Assembly: GCA_947492905.1 (NCBI GenBank)
Contig: CANLOL010000001.1
Coordinates: forward strand, 784,578 to 848,577
Source of the DNA: an uncultured Sphingorhabdus sp.
GTDB lineage: Bacteria > Pseudomonadota > Alphaproteobacteria > Sphingomonadales > Sphingomonadaceae
Direction of reading: 5' to 3'
Length of the DNA stretch: 64,000 nucleotides
A program made the position numbers and the translations under genes. Shown in pieces: positions 30,742 to 41,434 of the stretch (the stretch's first letter is position 1; each line of letters begins with the position of its first letter). The notes beneath the pieces are model-generated. The model had not been told where the DNA came from and ran no database searches. It worked only from the letters and a program-made list of their open reading frames with translations.

Positions 30742-30757
30742 TATAACGTATGAAATT

Positions 30758-30804
30758 TGGCGCACCCAAGAGGATTCGAACCTCTGGCCTCTGCCTTCGG
30801 AGGG
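30758..30804 (-). repeat. Displaced tRNA-Arg 3' end, distal attachment site of the island
   Basis: Bases 30762-30804 are identical to 41362-41404 of the intact tRNA-Arg gene. The CCA triplet (30758-30760) also matches, with a single mismatch at 30761. The copy covers the anticodon loop, variable region, T arm and acceptor 3' half, then similarity ends. This is what remains of the original tRNA 3' end after site-specific integration. It marks the left end of the island; no functional tRNA can form here. Confidence 0.93.
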
Positions 30805-31027
30805 AAGGTTTAAACGTTACTATGCTCTACTATGATAAGCTATTCCTTGGTATAAGGCATTGAATAAATATATTTATCTTAAAATACTACTCCTATGATT
30901 TCCTACAGAAGACCATCATATATTATCATCGGCGGTGAGTTTGGATGAAGTTTGCGGGGGTCAATTATTTCTATATCTTGTGCTGCAATATATTTCATAT
31001 TGTATAGCAAGGGATAGGAAATAAACG

Positions 31028-32971: not shown

Positions 32972-32990
32972 TTTATTAATACAAGCTTTA

Positions 32991-33392
32991 TTTATGATAA
33001 TATGTCAATCATTAATTAAATGAAATTATCTACATCATTGTTAGTTATTTATTCTACAATATTCCCATTTTCAATTGAAACTATTCTGTCCGCAGCATCG
33101 ATAGTTTCTTTACGGTGCGCGATGATGATCCGCGTAATACCCAATTGCGCGATAGCTTCATTCACAGCTTTTTCATGCGCGCTGTCTAAATGGGCAGTCC
33201 CTTCATCCATGATAAGCATTTTAGGGCGGCGGTATAAAGCACGGGCAAGCAGCACGCGTTGTTTTTGACCGCCAGATAGGGTTGATCCCATATCACCGAC
33301 CAATGTCTCATATTGCATCGGCATTGCCATAATATCATTGTGGATAGAGGCTGCCTCTGAAGACGATATAATTAAATCCATATCGGGGTTAT
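32991..33392 (-). repeat. Duplicated exporter 3' segment, copy A
   Basis: About 400 bases match 36608-37012: the 3' end of the ABC exporter gene plus some 60 bases beyond its stop. The part from roughly 33049 to 33330 is nearly identical and the upstream part more diverged. It points to a duplicated cassette whose ends were kept alike by recombination. Confidence 0.85.
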
Positions 33393-33565: not shown

Positions 33566-34258
33566 CTAATTTTTGCTGCTTGTACAACTTCTATCGGGAT
33601 GGTATAAAGTTGAGCCAAATTGCCTCTTTACTCTGTTAACCCATCTACGCACTGGATGTCCTGAGTTTAGCATTGTATCTTCTTGCAATTTATTAAGCCA
33701 ATCACTAAAATCAGCTAAACAAATATTCATTTCTTTAAACAAAGCAATTGACTTAGTTGCAACGATATTTGTTGTAGAAGATTGGCGAGGCCTTTTAATG
33801 TCATTTTTAGGAAAATGATTACCAAGTTTTGAAGAATCATGTTCTGGATCGCGCGCAACAACATCTGCAACAGTCCCTAAAACTTTTTCAGCGGTACTAG
33901 GTCTATGGTATACAGGTTGGTGACTTTCGACATGCTGCATTGCTATAACAATCAATATAGCTTGAACCTCTATCTGTTGTGATGCAGCGTGTAATATATC
34001 ACAATCAAGTAATATATTTTTCTTATCCTTGAGCAATAAAGCGTCAAAAGGCAATTCGCAATTGGTAGTGGTTTTCCATTTTTGATTAGTAGCTTCATTA
34101 ATTGCAGTCATGGAATAAGATAGCCAATTTTGATGGTCTAAAACTTGCGCTACGACTTGCTGTTCGTTGGCTGCATAGGATTTATTAGATAGAGAAGAGA
34201 GGAATATTGCCAAAAAGATTGCGAATGAATTTGAGCGAAGGATTGTTTTATATTTCAA
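33566..34258 (-). CDS. Unrecognised exported protein of the leader-peptide operon
   Basis: I do not recognise this 230-aa protein. It has a signal peptide (residues 1-29, ending SYA), several cysteines (in NCELPFD, LLDCDIL, ICLADF and a C-terminal RSCTSS), a helical hydrophobic stretch AILIVIAMQHVESH, and a basic C-terminus VRRWVNRVKRQ. No HExxH or Ser/Asp catalytic motif is visible. It starts with TTG 34258, overlapping the S9 peptidase stop as TTGA; no other start precedes the signal peptide. The strict coupling to the peptidase and leader peptide implies a shared periplasmic process, perhaps immunity, chaperoning or peptide maturation. Similarity searches would be needed to name it. Confidence 0.72.
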   Translation of the reverse strand: MKYKTILRSNSFAIFLAIFLSSLSNKSYAANEQQVVAQVLDHQNWLSYSMTAINEATNQKWKTTTNCELPFDALLLKDKKNILLDCDILHAASQQIEVQAILIVIAMQHVESHQPVYHRPSTAEKVLGTVADVVARDPEHDSSKLGNHFPKNDIKRPRQSSTTNIVATKSIALFKEMNICLADFSDWLNKLQEDTMLNSGHPVRRWVNRVKRQFGSTLYHPDRSCTSSKN

Positions 34259-36210
34259 TTGCTAGCGTCCTTAATGATTGTTGTAATTCGAGCAATCAGT
34301 GTTTCTTCCTCTTCATCAGCTAATAAGTCTGTATGATGCACGCCTTTAAGGTCTATGAAAATTTTATTTTCTTCAGGGATAGGTTCTGAACCGTATATGA
34401 TATTCTCTCGGTCTATTAGACTATCAAACTCGGGAATTAAAAATATAAAGTTAGGGAATATTTTTGTTTCCGAAGCTATATCACGAGGTGAGAGAGTTAA
34501 CATTTGTTCGGCATCTCTTGGATCGAGCGGATCGCCAAACTCATTGTCACCAGAACATTCATATCGCAAACCAGTGGAAAAAGACATACACGGTGCTCTT
34601 AAGATAACATTCTGGATTAATTTAGGTGCTCGTAAAGCAACTGATGATGCCAATATACCGCCTGCGCTTTGAGCATAAATAGAGGTGTTTCCAACAAAAC
34701 GTTCATCTATATTTTGCAAATAGAAGGCGGTGTCGATCAAATCTTTGGCAGCCTCTTTTTTACCTGTTGTTCTTATTCCAGAGCGCCACCAAGATGGTCC
34801 ATATCCACCTCCACTTCTAACATGGACAAAAGCAATACTGCCACCTTTGGCTAACCATTGATTACCCCAAGCTCCCAAATAACCTTCATTGAGCCATTTG
34901 CCGTAAGCACCATAAACCATAATCATCAACTGACCGCTTAAAGGCCCTTTTACCTTGCTCTCAATGAATAGCATTGGAACATTGCGCTTTTCAGTTGTAA
35001 TACGCTCCATAACGAAATCATTGGCATTAAATTGGTTTTGTCGTTTATTAAAAACTCTCTCATTTGATATGCAAGCTTTATTAAACGAGCTATCCAATTT
35101 TGCTATATTTAATTTGCTTGGTTGCAAAGGGCTGTAATGTTCCAGAATCATAGCATCACCTTTTGCTGTAGTAGCTTTAGCATAAATATGTTGCTGGTTT
35201 AACGTGCACATTGAATCAATCAACGGCTTAACAGTACTTTGATCATGATCAAGAATATAAGGACGCTGCCAGCCATTCTCAAAAAGGGTAAATGCCAATT
35301 TCCCATCGATATAATGAAAGCTGTCATATTCTCCATCTACCTCAGTATAAATATCATTTCCTTGTGTAGGGGCTATATAAATAAGCTTTTGATCTTCATA
35401 TTTTTCTTGCCAAACTCTTACAGCACCTAATTCTTTTGGAAAGTTTTTATCCCCCCAATAAACACAAATTATACTATCGTTTAAAACGGTAACGGGTCGG
35501 CATTCACTATTAGATTTTAATTTTTTGAAGGTTCCATCTTTGTAAAGAACTAACCATTTTTCTGCAGATGTTGCCGCTACAAAAGGGGTGTTTGGAGACA
35601 GTAAAGCAAAGCCTGAGATTTTATCGCTATCATAGACATTCCTTAAGATCGCAAATTCATTATCTTTGATAGGGATACTTCTTGGGGTTTTATTTCCTTC
35701 TATACTCCATGAAATAATGCGCCTTTCATCTTCATCATTAAATGCCATTGTTACATCAGAAGAATTTGTTAAGCTAAGAAAATTATTAGCGAATGTGTAT
35801 TTTTCAATAATGCCCGCGGGTATAAGACGCGTTACCCATGATTGCTCATTCTTTTCTGCTAAAAATATCTTTAGATTACCGTCCAAGCTGATGCGTAATA
35901 AACAAGTGATTTTATAACGACGAACACATGATATTTCATTCAACTGTGCTGATTGATCTGGGTTATCTTTAAGTTGGGTAAATGGGAAAGTGGTAAAATC
36001 AATTAACACTTTTTGACTTAATACTTCTTCACTCGTTAGCTGCAATCCAGAACTATTGGGGGCAATAAGCCCAGGTCTTGAGATGGAATATTCGAGTTCC
36101 TCGTTTCTCTCTTGCGCAAAGCTTTGACTTTGCATTCCAACAAATAACAAAATCAACAAATTTGAATATAAAAGAAACGAGGAACGTATCACAAAAACAA
36201 CCTTAATCAA
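34255..36210 (-). CDS. Periplasmic S9 (prolyl-oligopeptidase-like) serine peptidase
   Basis: A 651-aa protein with signal peptide (to about residue 32, ending SFAQ), a divergent beta-propeller-like region (40-400) and an alpha/beta-hydrolase peptidase domain. The catalytic triad can be placed: S515 in YAQSAGG, D596 in IPEFDSLID and H625 or H626 in GVHHTDL. MVYGAYG and VRSGGGYGPSWWRSG are typical of S9A enzymes such as oligopeptidase B and prolyl oligopeptidase. The usual G before the nucleophile is A (AQSAGG). Start TTG 36210 overlaps the leader peptide stop as TTGA; a GTG at 36192 with AAGG upstream is an alternative. Related S9 enzymes in sphingomonads open lasso peptides, but no lasso cyclase is present here. 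Confidence 0.83.
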   Translation of the reverse strand: MIKVVFVIRSSFLLYSNLLILLFVGMQSQSFAQERNEELEYSISRPGLIAPNSSGLQLTSEEVLSQKVLIDFTTFPFTQLKDNPDQSAQLNEISCVRRYKITCLLRISLDGNLKIFLAEKNEQSWVTRLIPAGIIEKYTFANNFLSLTNSSDVTMAFNDEDERRIISWSIEGNKTPRSIPIKDNEFAILRNVYDSDKISGFALLSPNTPFVAATSAEKWLVLYKDGTFKKLKSNSECRPVTVLNDSIICVYWGDKNFPKELGAVRVWQEKYEDQKLIYIAPTQGNDIYTEVDGEYDSFHYIDGKLAFTLFENGWQRPYILDHDQSTVKPLIDSMCTLNQQHIYAKATTAKGDAMILEHYSPLQPSKLNIAKLDSSFNKACISNERVFNKRQNQFNANDFVMERITTEKRNVPMLFIESKVKGPLSGQLMIMVYGAYGKWLNEGYLGAWGNQWLAKGGSIAFVHVRSGGGYGPSWWRSGIRTTGKKEAAKDLIDTAFYLQNIDERFVGNTSIYAQSAGGILASSVALRAPKLIQNVILRAPCMSFSTGLRYECSGDNEFGDPLDPRDAEQMLTLSPRDIASETKIFPNFIFLIPEFDSLIDRENIIYGSEPIPEENKIFIDLKGVHHTDLLADEEEETLIARITTIIKDASN

Positions 36211-36542
36211 AAACTAACAGTAACAACTACTCCCGCTCCTGAACCACTATTTCCAGAAGGAGCATTAGATTTTGTTCTAGCACCTTGTATGGTAGTGTTT
36301 TTGCCAACACTAATTTTTGGTCCAACACCCTTAATGGATGAACCTCCTCCACTAGGAGGTGCGGATCCGCCCTTTCCAAATGCTTCATTTAACTGATCGA
36401 TTTCTTGTTGAGTTAATTTCCTAACAGGCTCAGAAGACTTATCATCAGATTTTTTCTTATCGCCACCGCCGATAACTAAATCAACTTCATCGAACGTTAA
36501 TTCTAGAATGCCAGACAATTCTTCATTTTTTTGAATATACAT
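36207..36542 (-). CDS. Double-glycine leader peptide precursor (predicted exported peptide)
   Basis: A 111-aa precursor. Residues 9-27 (LSGILELTFDEVDLVIGGG) match the double-glycine leader pattern with spaced hydrophobic residues before GG, as cut by C39-peptidase ABC exporters. Cleavage after G26 or G27 would release about 84 residues: a charged stretch (DKKKSDDKSSEPVRKL), a helix-like LTQQEIDQLNEAFGKGG, then a Gly/Ser-rich tail ending GAGVVVTVSF. There are no cysteines, so no disulfide or lanthionine. GGAGGAG sits at good spacing before ATG 36542. The exporter and adaptor genes lie upstream on the same strand. Bacteriocin, signalling peptide or surface peptide are all possible. Confidence 0.8.
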   Translation of the reverse strand: MYIQKNEELSGILELTFDEVDLVIGGGDKKKSDDKSSEPVRKLTQQEIDQLNEAFGKGGSAPPSGGGSSIKGVGPKISVGKNTTIQGARTKSNAPSGNSGSGAGVVVTVSF

Positions 36543-36607
36543 AAATACTCCTCCTAATTACTATACTGCTATTCAACTCTATTGAGTTGTGCTTAAAATG
36601 CTAGATA

Positions 36608-37012
36608 TTTATGATAATATGCCAATCATTAATTTAAATAAAATTATCTACATCATTGTTAGTTATTTATTCTACAATATTCCCATTTTCAATTGAAACT
36701 ATTCTATCCGCCGCTTCGATAGTTTCTTTACGGTGAGCGATGATGATGCGCGTAATACCCAATTGCGCAATGGCCTCGTTCACAGCTTTTTCGTGGGCGC
36801 TGTCCAAATGGGCTGTACCTTCATCCATGATGAGCATTTTTGGTCGGCGGTATAAAGCGCGGGCAAGCAGCACACGCTGTTTTTGACCGCCAGATAGGGT
36901 TGATCCCATATCACCGACTAATGTCTCATATTGCATTGGCATGGCGGCGATATCGTTGTGAATAGCCGCCATCTGGGCCGCTGCCATAATGATTTGCATA
37001 TCGGGCGCATCG
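36608..37012 (-). repeat. Duplicated exporter 3' segment, copy B (intact gene side)
   Basis: The partner of the segment at 32991-33392. It holds the last part of the intact exporter gene and the beginning of the gap before the leader peptide gene. Confidence 0.85.
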
Positions 37013-38766
37013 TCAAACAGTGCAATATTGTCAGCTAATGACCCTGCGAATAAAACATCATCTTGTAAGACACCGGCCACTTGTTTGTGATAGCTTTGAT
37101 AGCCAAAGCGGCTTAATGGTAATCCATCGACAAGCATTGCTCCATTTTCGGGTTCGGCAAGGCCCAGTAAGATTTTCACCAATGTTGATTTTCCGCCGCC
37201 CGAAGGCCCCGTGATGGCGACATGCTCGCCCTGTTCGATTGTCAGATTGAGACCGTTTAATACAATCGGATCACTTGGTGAATAACGATAGATAATATCT
37301 TTAAGCTCGATCTTACCTTTGAGTTCGGTCTCCGCTTCTGCGCTAGGGCCAAAACTTATATCTTCTTCGGCAAGGGCAATATCGGATAAGCGTTCCAAAT
37401 GCAGCCCAATCAGACGAAAGGCAATGAATTGATCGACCAAGCTCGCCGCTTTGCTGGTAAATTGTCCTTTATAGGCCATATAGGCGAAGATCATACCAAC
37501 GCTAAAGCCGCCTCCCAACACAAAACTAATAGCAAGGTAGATGGTAAAGACATTTTCAACACCGAATAATAATCCATTGGCGGTGCTTTGCCAGATACCA
37601 ATACGCGCGCGGCGCACATCGGCATTCACATTATCGGATAATTTGGTTTGCCATAGAGCATGACGCAGCATCTCACGATTAAAAAGCCGTAATGTCGTGA
37701 TACCGCGCAGTGTTTCAATTAGGTTGGATTGTTCGGCGGCGCTCGTTACAATGGTTTCTTCAATAGCATCACGTTCAAAAGCATAAGATATAAGCCGTAC
37801 TATTAGATAGAGAATGAAAGCAATTAACGCGATTAACGCAAGCGTGGGGCTGTAAAAAAACATTACTGCCAATGTTAAAATGGCAAGTGCACCATCAACC
37901 AGTGCTGCTATTGCTCCAGTTAGTAATAAGTCTTGGATTGGACCTATTGATTGAAAGCGTGATAATATATCGCCAACATGACGTTTTTCATACCAATCGG
38001 TTGGCAGCCTGAATAATCGCCGTGCAATATTGACCGCGAGGCCATAGCCCAGCGATGTTCCGGCCCAGAGCAAAACAAATGATCGCAATAGACTAGCGCC
38101 AACATTGATGAGCATGAATAAGCCGAAGCCGATTGCTAATACGGCGAGTAGATCAAAGTCTTGTGCGGGCAATACCCTATCAATCGCAAGCTGCATATAA
38201 TAGGGCGATGCAAGGACGAAGGCTTGCAGGACAATGGTTAGGATCAGCGTTTGAACAATGGCACGCTTAAGGCCCGTCATATTTTGCCATAGCTGCGATA
38301 ATTTTAATCGCTCGCGCTGATCGCTTTTGGTAAAATCATTGGTAGGGCGTAATTCTAATGCAACGCCCGTAAAATGATTAGAGATTTCATCAAAGCTATA
38401 CCATTTGCTTGAAGATGCTGGATTATGGATTAAGACTTTGCCGTTTTTGACCGCCTCTATCACCACATAATGGTTTAAATCCCAATGCAAGATGGCGGGC
38501 ATTTGTAGATTTTCTAATTCTTCGAGTGGCAGTTTTACAGCGCGTGGCGCTAGGCCAACGCGATCTGCCAATGCTATTAGCGATTTTAGAGCCGCACCGC
38601 GCAATGAGGGTGCAAAACGTCTGCGCATAGTACCAAGGTCAATATTGAGGCCGTGATAGTTGGCAATCATAGCAAGGCTAGCAAGGCCGCATTCTGCAAT
38701 TTCGGTTTGACGGACCAATTTAACTTTTGATCTGGACCAAAACCCTAATTTGAGATTATCTTGCAT
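36667..38766 (-). CDS. Peptidase-containing ABC transporter (C39, bacteriocin-type exporter)
   Basis: A 699-aa exporter with an N-terminal C39 peptidase domain (C26 in EIAECGLAS, H99 in LHWDLNHYVV), a six-helix membrane domain (about 155-430) and an ATPase domain: Walker A ITGPSGGGKST, signature LSGGQKQR, Walker B MLIMDEG. It should remove double-glycine leaders and export the peptide. The position of the catalytic Asp reads HNPASS (N115) where HDPA is usual, so peptidase activity deserves checking. It follows the HlyD gene by nine bases and precedes the leader peptide gene by 124 bases, all on one strand. A fragment of a second copy lies at 33049-33500. Confidence 0.92.
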   Translation of the reverse strand: MQDNLKLGFWSRSKVKLVRQTEIAECGLASLAMIANYHGLNIDLGTMRRRFAPSLRGAALKSLIALADRVGLAPRAVKLPLEELENLQMPAILHWDLNHYVVIEAVKNGKVLIHNPASSSKWYSFDEISNHFTGVALELRPTNDFTKSDQRERLKLSQLWQNMTGLKRAIVQTLILTIVLQAFVLASPYYMQLAIDRVLPAQDFDLLAVLAIGFGLFMLINVGASLLRSFVLLWAGTSLGYGLAVNIARRLFRLPTDWYEKRHVGDILSRFQSIGPIQDLLLTGAIAALVDGALAILTLAVMFFYSPTLALIALIAFILYLIVRLISYAFERDAIEETIVTSAAEQSNLIETLRGITTLRLFNREMLRHALWQTKLSDNVNADVRRARIGIWQSTANGLLFGVENVFTIYLAISFVLGGGFSVGMIFAYMAYKGQFTSKAASLVDQFIAFRLIGLHLERLSDIALAEEDISFGPSAEAETELKGKIELKDIIYRYSPSDPIVLNGLNLTIEQGEHVAITGPSGGGKSTLVKILLGLAEPENGAMLVDGLPLSRFGYQSYHKQVAGVLQDDVLFAGSLADNIALFDDAPDMQIIMAAAQMAAIHNDIAAMPMQYETLVGDMGSTLSGGQKQRVLLARALYRRPKMLIMDEGTAHLDSAHEKAVNEAIAQLGITRIIIAHRKETIEAADRIVSIENGNIVE

Positions 38767-38775
38767 ATTTATACT

Positions 38776-39960
38776 CTAACGGTTGCGCACGGCAAATAAG
38801 GGTTCAAACAGCCATTTGATGAGGCTTTGCTCTTCGGTCACTATATTGGCGGTTAAAGACATGCCTGTGGATAGCGGCTTATTATCGCCATAGGCAGAGA
38901 TAGAGGTTTCATCCAATTCTGCCACCACAAGAAAAACGGCAACAGTAGAACCGTTTTGGCCTGCTTGTGTGATCGGTGCACTTGCAATGGACTTTATGCG
39001 CGCTTTCACTGTTCCAAAGCGCTGATAGGGGTATGCATCAAGAGCAAGGCCGACGCTCTGTCCAACCTCGATAAAGCCAGTGGCGGCGCTTGGGACATAT
39101 AATTCGGCAACTAATTTTGATCCTTTGGGAATGATCGCCATAAGCGGCTGTCCTGCGGTTACGGCTTGGCCAACGCGGGCCGTAAGAGCAGTAACTTTAC
39201 CATCAATAGGTGCGCTTAGCTGGTAGGCGGATGATGCCTGCGTATTCACCATACGCTGCGCTATATCTGATTTTTGGGAATCCAAAGATGATATTTGAGC
39301 TCCCGCGTTGGCGCGCGCTTGACGAATAGATAATTCTGCCTCTCTTGCAGCGGATTGTTGACGCGCTAATGTTTGACGCAGTCCCGATAGTTGCTGCTGG
39401 CGCGAAAGATATGTTTCTTCGCGTGTTAATATATCACGTTTGGATATGAAACCGCGTTCCGCCACAACACGGGCTTGATCGAGCTGCTCTTTCGCGGAAA
39501 CAACCAAGCCCTCTTGCACAGAAATCTGTTCTTTTATACCTGATATTTCTGCGTTTAACCCCTGTATACGCGCAGCCAACTGAGATTGTTCCGCTTGCAT
39601 CGCAGCACTGACTTGACGCTTTTGCAGTTGTAATCCGCTTTCTTGGGAAGATAAGGAATCTAATATAAGGTTATTGCTGCTACCGCCATCTGCTAAGCGT
39701 TGATCGGCATTAATCTCGATCAGGGCATTACCTTCCTCAACACTTTGCCCATCTGCTATTTTAATATCTTTAATAACACCTGTTCGTGCCGAGGTAATTT
39801 GTGAAATACCGCCCGTAGGGGTGATGATCCCTGTGACCGTCTCAATGCGTGAATAGCTTGCTAAGGATAGAAATATTATCGCAATAATAATAGCAGAAAA
39901 TATTAATCCGCCAATAATTTGCCAACTAATTGGAAGGGCCATATGGACATTGCCATGCAA
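38776..39960 (-). CDS. HlyD-family periplasmic adaptor of the peptide exporter
   Basis: A 394-aa membrane-fusion protein of the CvaA/RaxA kind: one N-terminal membrane helix (about 13-33), a lipoyl half-motif GVIKDIKIADGQSVEEGNALIEI, a long coiled coil (about 100-225) and the second lipoyl/barrel part ending with TGMSLTANIVTEEQSLIKWLFEPL. It bridges the ABC exporter to an outer-membrane channel of the TolC type, which is not in the island. The start is TTG 39960, or ATG 39942. Family members usually have another 15-25 residues before HGNVHMALP; an in-frame stop occurs just upstream, where an IS1595-like remnant abuts. The native N-terminus was therefore probably lost. Confidence 0.87.
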   Translation of the reverse strand: MHGNVHMALPISWQIIGGLIFSAIIIAIIFLSLASYSRIETVTGIITPTGGISQITSARTGVIKDIKIADGQSVEEGNALIEINADQRLADGGSSNNLILDSLSSQESGLQLQKRQVSAAMQAEQSQLAARIQGLNAEISGIKEQISVQEGLVVSAKEQLDQARVVAERGFISKRDILTREETYLSRQQQLSGLRQTLARQQSAAREAELSIRQARANAGAQISSLDSQKSDIAQRMVNTQASSAYQLSAPIDGKVTALTARVGQAVTAGQPLMAIIPKGSKLVAELYVPSAATGFIEVGQSVGLALDAYPYQRFGTVKARIKSIASAPITQAGQNGSTVAVFLVVAELDETSISAYGDNKPLSTGMSLTANIVTEEQSLIKWLFEPLFAVRNR

Positions 39961-39965
39961 CTTCT

Positions 39966-40240
39966 CTTTGCGATGCCATTATATTCACGTAAGTGGCGCT
40001 TTGTTTGGTTCCAGAAATTTCGATGCCGTTGATATGATCATGTTTGTCAGCAAGCAGCTTTGAATGATTAATCCGATGATGTTTGAAATCTGTAATATTA
40101 AGCACAGCATAGCTGCGATAACTATCGGTATAAACGATACTATCTGGTTGTATTTTATAGGCAATTATCGGAATGAGGGTGTCTGATCCTGTGTCTGGTA
40201 CTGGAAGCGTAAATACCTTGCCGCCGTGTCTTGCGGCGAA
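39966..40240 (-). pseudogene. IS1595-family (ISXO2-like) transposase remnant
   Basis: Translating the minus strand gives the transposase segments SIVYTDSYRSYAVL, DFKHHRINHSKLLADK and HINGIE. After a one-base loss near 40015 (GAAATTTC where GAAAATTTC is expected), NFWNQTKRHLREYNGIAK follows in the next frame. These are the conserved DDE-region motifs of IS1595 transposases (YTD, HINGIENFW). N-terminal and C-terminal parts are missing, and no terminal inverted repeats are evident. The remnant ends within a few codons of the HlyD start, so the insertion may have trimmed or replaced that gene's leader and promoter. Confidence 0.8.
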
Positions 40241-40282
40241 TGTCTTTAACTACTCGTTCAGTACCTGCTTTGGGCTTTGAGT

Positions 40283-40588: not shown

Positions 40589-41349
40589 GTGAAATTAACG
40601 AAGCGATTGATCGATAAATCCTTACCTAGAAGCAAGCAATACACCGTCTGGTGTGGTGAACTAAAAGGCTTCGGAGTGTATATAATGCCTAGCGGTACAA
40701 AAACATATTTTGTTGATTATCGAAATGCAGAAAATATACGTAGAAGAATAACAATTGGACGACATGGAAAAATCACAACTGAAGAAGCCAGAAGGCTTGC
40801 TATCGTAACTTTTGGATCAGCTGTTAAAGGCGATGATCCAGCAAGTCGACGTGATGAGTTGCGCAAATCGATTACTGTGAAACAACTTTGTGAGCAGTAT
40901 CTTGAAATGGCCGAGAAAGGTCTGATTTTAGGGAAATCTAACCGCCCAAAGAAGCCTAGTACAATTAGCACGGATAAAGGTAGGATTTTGCGGCATATTA
41001 TTCCGTTATTAGGGAATAAGAAAATTACGAGTTTGAATAAGTCTGATATCAATCGATTTGTCAGAGATGTGGCCTCAGGTAAAACCGCCATGATCAAAGA
41101 TACTGAGAATCTCAGGGGTAAGGCAATCGTTACTGGGGGTAATGGAACGGCCACTCGCACAACAGGTCTATTGAGCGGAATTATGTCTTTTGCAGTTTCT
41201 GAGGGATTCATTGAACATAATCCAGTTTGGGGAATTAAGCGGCCTGCATATAACCTGCATATAACCTGCATATAATATGCGTACTAAAAGACTGTCGGTT
41301 GGTGAATATGTTCGTTTAGGAAAGGCGCTTAGAGATACAATAACTATTT
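40589..41349 (+). pseudogene. Tyrosine-type integrase, frameshifted and lacking the catalytic domain
   Basis: The intact part (40589-41275, 228 aa) has the P4-integrase-like arm-binding domain (residues 1-90) with GELKGFGVYIMPSGTKTYFV, and a core-binding domain (about 95-215). At 41243-41275 the unit CCTGCATATAA occurs three times. Removing two copies (22 bases) restores the frame into RPAYNMRTKRLSVGEYVRLGKAL, the normal family continuation, which then stops at 41349. The catalytic domain with its Arg, His and Tyr is missing altogether, since the tRNA gene begins nine bases later. The start codon is GTG 40589. The gene lies beside the tRNA 3' end as expected for its att site. Confidence 0.87.
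41243..41275 (+). repeat. Tandem triplication of CCTGCATATAA inside the integrase
   Basis: Three perfect copies of the 11-base unit at 41243-41253, 41254-41264 and 41265-41275. The added 22 bases shift the frame and bring a TAA stop. Replication slippage is the simplest cause. Confidence 0.95.
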
Positions 41350-41357
41350 GATTTTAT

Positions 41358-41434
41358 TGGTGCACCCAAGAGGATTCGAACCTCTGGCCTCTGCCTTCGG
41401 AGGGCAGCGCTCTATCCAGCTGAGCTATGGGTGC
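41358..41434 (-). tRNA. tRNA-Arg (anticodon CCG)
   Basis: Full cloverleaf on the minus strand: acceptor GCACCCA pairing with TGGGTGC, D arm GCTCAGCTGGATAGAGC, anticodon arm CTGCC-CTCCGAA-GGCAG with anticodon CCG, T arm AGAGG-TTCGAAT-CCTCT. CCA is encoded at 41360-41358. This is the reconstituted attachment-site copy: its 3' 43 bases are repeated at the far end of the island. It reads CGG arginine codons. Confidence 0.97.

What the first reader, a model, noticed from the sequence alone, without database searches (positions are those of the whole stretch)
33566..38766. Coupled leader-peptide, S9 peptidase and unknown exported protein with a dedicated C39 ABC exporter
A Gly-Gly-leader precursor (36207-36542) is followed by a periplasmic prolyl-oligopeptidase-like enzyme and an unrecognised exported protein. 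The second and third genes both begin with TTG overlapping the previous stop (TTGA). The exporter and HlyD adaptor precede them on the same strand. I know of no described bacteriocin or signalling system with this set: no lasso cyclase, lanthionine enzyme or classic immunity gene is present. A plausible model is export of a Gly/Ser-rich 84-residue peptide with further cleavage by the S9 enzyme in the periplasm. The third protein would be a partner or immunity factor.
Basis: partly seen in the sequence, partly recalled or inferred. Interest (0 to 1): 0.85.

Follow-up and report, generated by a model that had tools for sequence, protein, structure and literature searches.

The report
Swapped bacteriocin module with protease partner
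A soil/water bacterium carries a mobile island with an exporter for a small, probably antibacterial protein, and the proteases encoded beside such proteins look more like shields for the producer than like processing enzymes.

Summary
They form one minus-strand cluster in a ~10.6-kb tRNA-Arg island of a Sphingorhabdus genome. The precursor has a Gly-Gly leader, the exporter is a C39/ABC protein, and the second gene is a secreted S9-type enzyme with a conserved Ser/Asp/His triad. The third protein has no detectable relative. The trio recurred in no genome searched.

First, a 360-bp copy of the exporter 3' end (91% identical) sits behind the trio and is followed by a secreted retropepsin-like protein (P0005). 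In a congeneric genome that protein (98% identical) follows a second precursor with this leader. In the window that precursor is gone, apparently across an 11-bp repeat. This looks like displacement of a cargo module, as in Rhs loci. Second, in related exporter loci the gene after the Gly-Gly effector often encodes a secreted or membrane peptidase or alpha/beta-hydrolase of unrelated clans: 12 of 22 partners against 3 of 19 controls by Pfam (p=0.02).

Best reading: a polymorphic bacteriocin module whose secreted protease partner gives immunity (inferred). The copy may be decaying: an IS1595 remnant cuts the HlyD 5' end and the integrase is truncated.

The parts
30757..30807 (-). Partial copy (51 nt, 96%) of the tRNA-Arg 3' end: left att-like end of the island
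   Evidence: the same end is present in congener contig L213
31028..32920 (-). P0005: secreted retropepsin-like (Asp_protease_2 5.6e-14) + PDZ + TPR protein, 630 aa; partner gene of a displaced module, its precursor deleted here
   Evidence: congener L213 keeps it at 98% behind a Gly-Gly precursor
32989..33347 (-). Displaced copy of the exporter 3' end plus intergenic spacer (360-column alignment, 91.1% identical to 36606-36965)
33566..34258 (-). P0003: 230-aa protein with a Sec-type signal sequence by eye, no recognised family; possible second partner
34255..36210 (-). P0002: S9 (oligopeptidase B/POP-like) enzyme with a signal sequence by eye, 651 aa, triad Ser515/Asp596/His625 by alignment
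36207..36542 (-). P0001: 111-aa precursor, Gly-Gly leader LTFDEVDLVIGG, Gly/Ser-rich core of about 85 aa
   Evidence: leader shared with the L213 precursor
36606..36965 (-). Exporter 3' end and spacer: reference copy of the repeat
36667..38766 (-). P0004: C39 peptidase-containing ABC exporter, 699 aa
38776..39960 (-). P0007: HlyD-type adaptor; lacks the first 13-20 residues that three homologues have
39936..40246 (-). IS1595 (ISXO2-like) transposase remnant running into the HlyD 5' end
   Evidence: PF12762 E=1e-10
40589..41275 (+). Truncated tyrosine integrase (arm, SAM and central domains; no catalytic domain found)
41358..41434 (-). tRNA-Arg (CCG), insertion site of the island
   Evidence: tRNA-Arg precedes the same right-flank gene in L220 and, with a rearranged tRNA end, in L219

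Best explanation
The trio is one interchangeable cargo module of a C39/ABC (PCAT) type I exporter on a tRNA-Arg island. The module encodes a Gly-Gly-leader effector of the bacteriocin/microcin kind plus its cognate secreted partner or partners. The leader is cut by the C39 domain and the ~85-aa protein leaves through PCAT-HlyD (and an unlinked TolC) in one step. The S9 enzyme, perhaps with the 230-aa protein, waits in the periplasm and protects the producer by cutting or binding incoming effector. The module entered by recombination at the exporter 3' end and pushed an older module (precursor + retropepsin P0005) downstream. The older precursor was then lost and P0005 kept as an orphan partner. 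Shown: module layout, repeat, congeneric precursor-P0005 pair, triad by alignment, recurrence of secreted peptidases beside such effectors. Inferred: antibacterial activity, cleavage, export route, order of the recombination events, immunity.
For: Exporter 3' repeat in front of both cargo genes. Congener contig L213: precursor with the same leader and similar upstream DNA directly before P0005. The 11-bp TATCATAAATA occurs in the exporter spacer, at the window junction and at the end of the L213 precursor. Cargo genes are 36-39% G+C against 45-47% for exporter and HlyD. Of 11 other family genomes with close exporters (66-80%), 7 show other Gly-Gly candidates, glycine-zipper-like or short Cys peptides by eye. 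Remnants between modules recur: an HlyD piece in L124 (78% over 73 aa) and an HlyD-PCAT fusion in L130 (77% over 30 aa, 67% over 36 aa). Peptidase or alpha/beta-hydrolase partners: 12 of 22 vs 3 of 19 controls at Pfam E 0.05, p=0.021; 10 of 22 vs 2 of 19 above Pfam's own cut-offs, p=0.019. Two other retropepsin partners (L144, L209), another S9 partner (L173), and an S9 gene near two Gly-Gly peptides in Shewanella MR-1. One module has a CAAX/Rce1-type partner (L172), a kind already linked to bacteriocin loci (listing).
Against: No toxicity or immunity was tested. The precursor core matches no toxin family (only a weak lantibiotic-leader hit at E 1.1) and lacks the TonB-box-like motif of several larger effectors. 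The nearest P0002 relative stands alone in G357 with no exporter or effector nearby, so this S9 family is not tied to bacteriocins. P0005 in window vs L213 shows 6 synonymous and 12 nonsynonymous codon changes, no sign of strong constraint. The partner count was made after the pattern was seen, with controls from the same loci; p is about 0.02 under each of the four ways of counting tried. Ten of 22 partners match no peptidase or hydrolase family. L213's genome has no PCAT at 1e-100, so that module too may be a relic. In 4 of the 11 close-exporter loci no convincing Gly-Gly cargo was seen. The HlyD 5' end is damaged.
Confidence: 0.47

Rival explanations
1. Maturation: the S9 enzyme trims the exported peptide in the periplasm to its active form and the 230-aa protein is the immunity factor.
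For: Immediate downstream position with 4-base overlaps; signal peptide by eye and conserved triad.
Against: A PCAT-HlyD-TolC route (established for colicin V, recalled) bypasses the periplasm. Sister modules carry unrelated peptidase clans in the same slot. P0005 is kept without its precursor.
Confidence: 0.2
2. Peptide signalling: the exported peptide is a pheromone and the secreted protease clears it to prevent self-induction.
For: TraB/PrgY/gumN-family partner beside a Gly-Gly gene in L210 (the role of PrgY is recalled); response-regulator-like genes, by eye, near the exporters of L039-L041.
Against: No regulator-like gene seen among the island ORFs. Related loci encode glycine-zipper-like peptides and a phospholipase-A2-like effector (motif readings by eye or recalled), which suggests weapons.
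Confidence: 0.12
3. Decayed relic: the exporter no longer works in this genome and only orphan immunity/partner genes, if anything, are used.
For: HlyD lacks its N-terminus where an IS1595 remnant abuts; integrase truncated; P0005 precursor deleted.
Against: Exporter, precursor and partner frames are open; C39 Cys/His and S9 triad kept. HlyD keeps its membrane segment (by eye).
Confidence: 0.15
4. Chance neighbourhood: the S9 gene and P0003 are unrelated passengers of a mobile island.
For: Trio found nowhere else in the sets searched; P0002 relative stands alone.
Against: Translational overlaps, shared low G+C, and recurrence of secreted peptidases in this slot.
Confidence: 0.06

Closest known systems
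Class II microcins / colicin V-type bacteriocins (CvaA-CvaB-TolC)
   Same: Gly-Gly leader, C39 ABC exporter, HlyD-type adaptor
   Different: Immunity there is usually a small membrane protein (recalled); here the candidates are a 651-aa secreted S9 enzyme and a 230-aa secreted protein
Cdz contact-dependent system of Caulobacter (PMC5380434, passages read)
   Same: Alphaproteobacterial type I export of toxic proteins with immunity encoded in the cluster
   Different: Cdz has two glycine-zipper proteins and a three-TM immunity protein, CdzI; neither is seen here (by eye)
Rhs/CDI orphan toxin-immunity modules (PMC3967940, passages; PMC10539506, abstract)
   Same: Displaced module behind the active one, flanked by a homologous piece of the conserved gene (522 bp, 95% in Salmonella Rhs; 360 bp, 91% here); orphan partner kept
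   Different: The shared piece lies in the exporter gene, not in the toxin; the orphan's effector is lost
Proteases encoded in Gram-positive bacteriocin loci: Abi/CAAX type (SilX, PMC9298176, search listing and abstract start only)
   Same: A protease-family protein encoded in the bacteriocin locus
   Different: Those are intramembrane enzymes (recalled); here soluble secreted S9, retropepsin, ClpP-like, M16, M61 and esterase families
Oligopeptidase B / prolyl oligopeptidase (S9A)
   Same: C-terminal domain alignable, triad conserved
   Different: Signal sequence, N-terminal half without family match, no close relative

Membership tests
Class II microcin / PCAT bacteriocin locus | Precursor with Gly-Gly leader | tested here: met
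   LTFDEVDLVIGG in P0001; leader resembles those beside other PCATs
Class II microcin / PCAT bacteriocin locus | C39 peptidase ABC exporter with catalytic Cys and His | tested here: met
   (third residue Asn, as in 8 of the 9 other close exporters in that alignment)
Class II microcin / PCAT bacteriocin locus | Intact HlyD-type adaptor | tested here: inconclusive
   Domain present, N-terminus cut by IS remnant
Class II microcin / PCAT bacteriocin locus | TolC-type outer membrane partner | not tested
   Not searched in this genome
Class II microcin / PCAT bacteriocin locus | Antibacterial activity and specific immunity | not testable with these tools
   Needs bench work
Cdz system | Multi-TM immunity protein in the operon | tested here: not met
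   No such ORF of 60 aa or more seen between exporter and P0005 (by eye); the partners carry signal sequences instead
Lasso peptide locus with isopeptidase | Lasso cyclase and leader protease genes | tested here: not met
   No such Pfam/NCBIfam match among the cluster proteins scanned, apart from a lasso PqqD-like hit at E 0.097 in P0005, below cut-off
NHLP bacteriocin exporter (TIGR03796) | Score above the curated cut-off | tested here: not met
   465.9 vs 853.3 bits
S9 peptidase (PF00326) | Score above gathering cut-off and Ser/Asp/His triad | tested here: met
   33.5 vs 22.6 bits; Ser515, Asp596, His625 aligned with 7 S9 proteins
Rhs/CDI-like displaced-module loci | Orphan module behind a duplicated piece of the conserved gene | tested here: met
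Rhs/CDI-like displaced-module loci | Shared N-terminal region with variable cargo and cognate partner | tested here: met
   P0001 and the L213 precursor share the leader, differ in core and partner; two examples only, and that the partners are cognate is inferred

The most novel reading that the evidence does not exclude
C39-exported effectors of proteobacteria form a polymorphic toxin class whose cognate immunity proteins are secreted or membrane proteases, recruited independently from at least six unrelated clans (S9/alpha-beta hydrolase, retropepsin, ClpP-like, M16, M61, CAAX). Modules are swapped by recombination at exporter or adaptor gene ends, which leaves orphan protease-immunity genes such as P0005.
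Probability: 0.33. Interest if true: 0.8.

Novelty: new variant of a known kind. Interest (0 to 1): 0.6.

Why it matters
If right, it gives a rule for finding immunity genes beside bacteriocin exporters outside the enterobacteria, and a case of immunity by degradation rather than binding. It also extends Rhs-like module displacement to type I exported bacteriocins. The window offers a clean test pair: the same leader with two different cores and two different protease partners.

Tried and rejected
Structure of P0003: AlphaFold2 without an alignment gave mean pLDDT 34, unusable; no fold search was run on it. The idea that P0003 is a degenerate M48 metallopeptidase came from reading the sequence; Pfam at E up to 10 gave only YdjC at 0.1, so it is dropped.

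P0002 against the Shewanella S9 (P0008): not alignable by BLASTP, so that similarity is of kind only. Plasmid records gave 61 partial generic S9 matches. P0003 had no match in plasmids at E 1 or in viral contigs; P0002 none in viral contigs or in the genome contigs. These contig scans find close relatives only.

A clean empty site was not obtained: in G192 the tRNA end is rearranged and no match to the window's left flank was found in the 19 kb read.

Partner count: one search scanned the fetched loci (106 had some Gly-Gly-like candidate); one search listed 58 rows with a strict leader and a downstream ORF of 200 aa or more, the window apart. Dropped before the count, sorted by eye: 18 HlyD, 2 TolC-like, 1 LanB-like, 3 ATP-grasp-like and 7 ORFs without signal sequence or likely spurious, then duplicates; 21 distinct remained, 22 with the window. 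Eight of these had no Pfam family at all (L053, L130's second ClpP-like protein, L137, L138, L147, L148, L149, L186); by motif I read L053, L130, L148, L149 and L186 as hydrolases, but they are counted as misses, as are L141 and L210. Two of the 12 counted hits (L130, L146) lie below Pfam's own cut-off. Of 20 control proteins drawn from a pool of 43, L130:6421 was left out because it is itself a suspected partner. Three controls match (L205 M16, L186 M3, L181 by weak ATLF and M90 hits); L188 has DUF885. Controls come from the same loci and exclude membrane proteins, so they are not fully matched; without L172 it is 11 of 21 vs 3 of 19, p=0.022.

Papers: PMC5380434, PMC7259588 and PMC3967940 were read in passages, PMC10539506 and PMC7259588 in abstract and outline; the others in search listings only. 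PMC7259588 (protease bacteriocins of Xanthomonas) was set aside: there the proteases are the killing agents and need type II secretion. Full-text searches for precedents; no listed title or abstract start named S9 or retropepsin immunity for C39-exported bacteriocins, but the listings were capped and the library holds open-licence papers only.

Full report
The observation. The cluster is as described. The genes are on the minus strand: HlyD 38776-39960, C39/ABC exporter 36667-38766, 111-aa precursor 36207-36542, 651-aa S9 gene 34255-36210 and 230-aa gene 33566-34258, the last two with 4-base TTGA overlaps and TTG starts. The exporter has C39, membrane and ATPase domains and keeps the C39 Cys and His. 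The S9 gene matches PF00326 above cut-off; Ser515, Asp596 and His625 align with the triad of seven S9 proteins. The 230-aa protein matched nothing at E 0.1 and its model was unusable.

The surroundings. The cluster lies between a tRNA-Arg(CCG) gene (41358-41434) and a 51-nt, 96% copy of its 3' end at 30757-30807, with a truncated integrase beside the tRNA. A tRNA-Arg precedes the same right-flank gene in G330 and, with a rearranged tRNA end, in G192. Upstream of HlyD an IS1595 transposase remnant (PF12762, 1e-10) runs into the gene. Three homologues have 13-20 more residues at the start, so HlyD has lost its first residues and probably its promoter.

A displaced module. A 360-bp stretch covering the exporter 3' end and the spacer after it (36606-36965) recurs at 32989-33347 with 91.1% identity. 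The first copy leads into the precursor, the second into P0005, a protein with a signal sequence and retropepsin-like, PDZ and TPR domains. Of 119 genomes searched with residues 1-450 of P0005, two had it at 1e-10: the window's own and G331, 98% identical. On the G331 contig (L213) P0005 is preceded by an 89-aa Gly-Gly precursor with the window precursor's leader (18 of 32 positions identical) and similar upstream DNA, and followed by the same tRNA-like end. The leader pattern, with up to 3 mismatches, was found in 2 of 45 genus genomes, these two. In the window the exporter spacer is joined to the sequence that follows the L213 precursor, and TATCATAAATA is present in the exporter spacer, at the window junction and at the end of the L213 precursor. 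The simplest history: a module of precursor + retropepsin stood behind the exporter; a new module of precursor + S9 + P0003 entered by recombination in the exporter 3' end; the old precursor was deleted across the 11-bp repeat. The cargo genes have 36-39% G+C, exporter and HlyD 45-47%.

Cargo elsewhere. Exporters 66-80% identical occur in 11 other family genomes of 296 searched (30, own included, had a match at 1e-100) and in five further congeners at 67-74% (8 of 45 genus genomes at 1e-100, own included). Seven of the 11 family loci show other Gly-Gly candidates: glycine-zipper-like peptides and, in five, a short Cys peptide with a GEGCTEP-like core. Nothing resembling P0002 or P0003 was found among the ORFs picked from 20 fetched loci. 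Remnants between modules were also found: in L124 an ORF whose 73 residues are 78% identical to the start of its HlyD, and in L130 a 62-aa ORF joining HlyD residues 1-30 (77%) to PCAT residues 670-705 (67%).

The partner rule. A scan of genome contigs with a related exporter gave 80 loci; these and the other fetched loci were scanned for Gly-Gly genes. Taking the downstream ORF of 200 aa or more after a strict Gly-Gly leader, and dropping the rows named under Tried and rejected, 22 distinct partners remained with the window. Twelve match a peptidase or alpha/beta-hydrolase family in Pfam at E 0.05: S9 (window, L173), retropepsin (L213, L144, L209), Hydrolase_4 (L143, L146), esterase (L196), M16 (L180), M61 (L194), Clp (L130, 0.018) and CAAX/Rce1-like (L172). 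Of 19 control secreted proteins from the same loci three match; p=0.021. Above Pfam's own cut-offs it is 10 of 22 against 2 of 19, p=0.019; with TraB/PrgY/gumN (L210) and DUF885 added, 13 of 22 against 4 of 19, p=0.025. The test was devised after the pattern was seen, so it is suggestive only. Partners with no family match include L137, L138 and L147; L141 has only a weak holin match. Shewanella oneidensis MR-1 has a similar grouping on its megaplasmid: HlyD, PCAT, two annotated bacteriocin-like peptides and, 482 bases on, an S9 peptidase.

Why immunity rather than maturation. Type I export carries the substrate past the periplasm in one step (established for colicin V, recalled), whereas Sec-exported enzymes sit there. 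Unrelated enzyme classes fill one slot, as expected for cognate protection against different effectors and not for one processing step. A partner persists where its precursor is lost, as orphan immunity genes do in Rhs loci (PMC3967940, PMC10539506). Against this: codon changes in P0005 show no strong constraint (6 synonymous, 12 nonsynonymous); L213's genome has no PCAT at 1e-100; and the only P0002 relative found beyond generic S9 matches (25% identity over residues 91-598, 1 of 395 other order genomes) stands alone beside BlaI-like and RecQ-like genes (names by eye). No activity was measured.

Verdict. A real, mosaic bacteriocin-type module, a new variant of a known kind. The trio is not a recurring system in the sets searched, but the grouping 'Gly-Gly effector plus secreted protease partner' recurs and is testable. 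The copy here may be partly inactive.

Noticed in passing
L136:12669-13481, L052, L053, L135, L144, L149 (effectors): After the Gly-Gly site (up to 40 residues on in L052), 6 of 19 larger sphingomonad effectors (some near-duplicates among the 19) carry [DE]IVV-type motifs resembling sphingomonad TonB boxes (resemblance recalled; 0.01 expected by shuffling); TonB-dependent uptake of the toxin is a guess.
   Followed up: partly
L053:791-1243: A Gly-Gly effector with a phospholipase-A2-like CYVHDLNYG motif (recalled, no Pfam match) followed by a 132-aa secreted protein.
   Followed up: no
L142:4853-5785: A 310-aa Gly-Gly effector with a weak DUF4329 match (4e-4, below cut-off).
   Followed up: no
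L036, L039, L040, L041, L042: Short Gly-Gly peptides sharing a GEGCTEP-like core beside five close exporters; possibly a separate peptide family.
   Followed up: no
L130:14160-14348: A 62-aa ORF that joins an HlyD N-terminus to a PCAT C-terminal piece, a remnant between two effector modules.
   Followed up: yes
L116:8297-11132 (Shewanella oneidensis MR-1 megaplasmid): Two glycine-zipper-like Gly-Gly peptides and an S9 peptidase beside a PCAT and integrases; a search by guessed locus tags gave two papers with one mention each, not read.
   Followed up: partly
L127:6227-7369, L200, L201: ATP-grasp-like proteins next to Gly-Gly precursors, perhaps graspetide-type loci (by eye).
   Followed up: no
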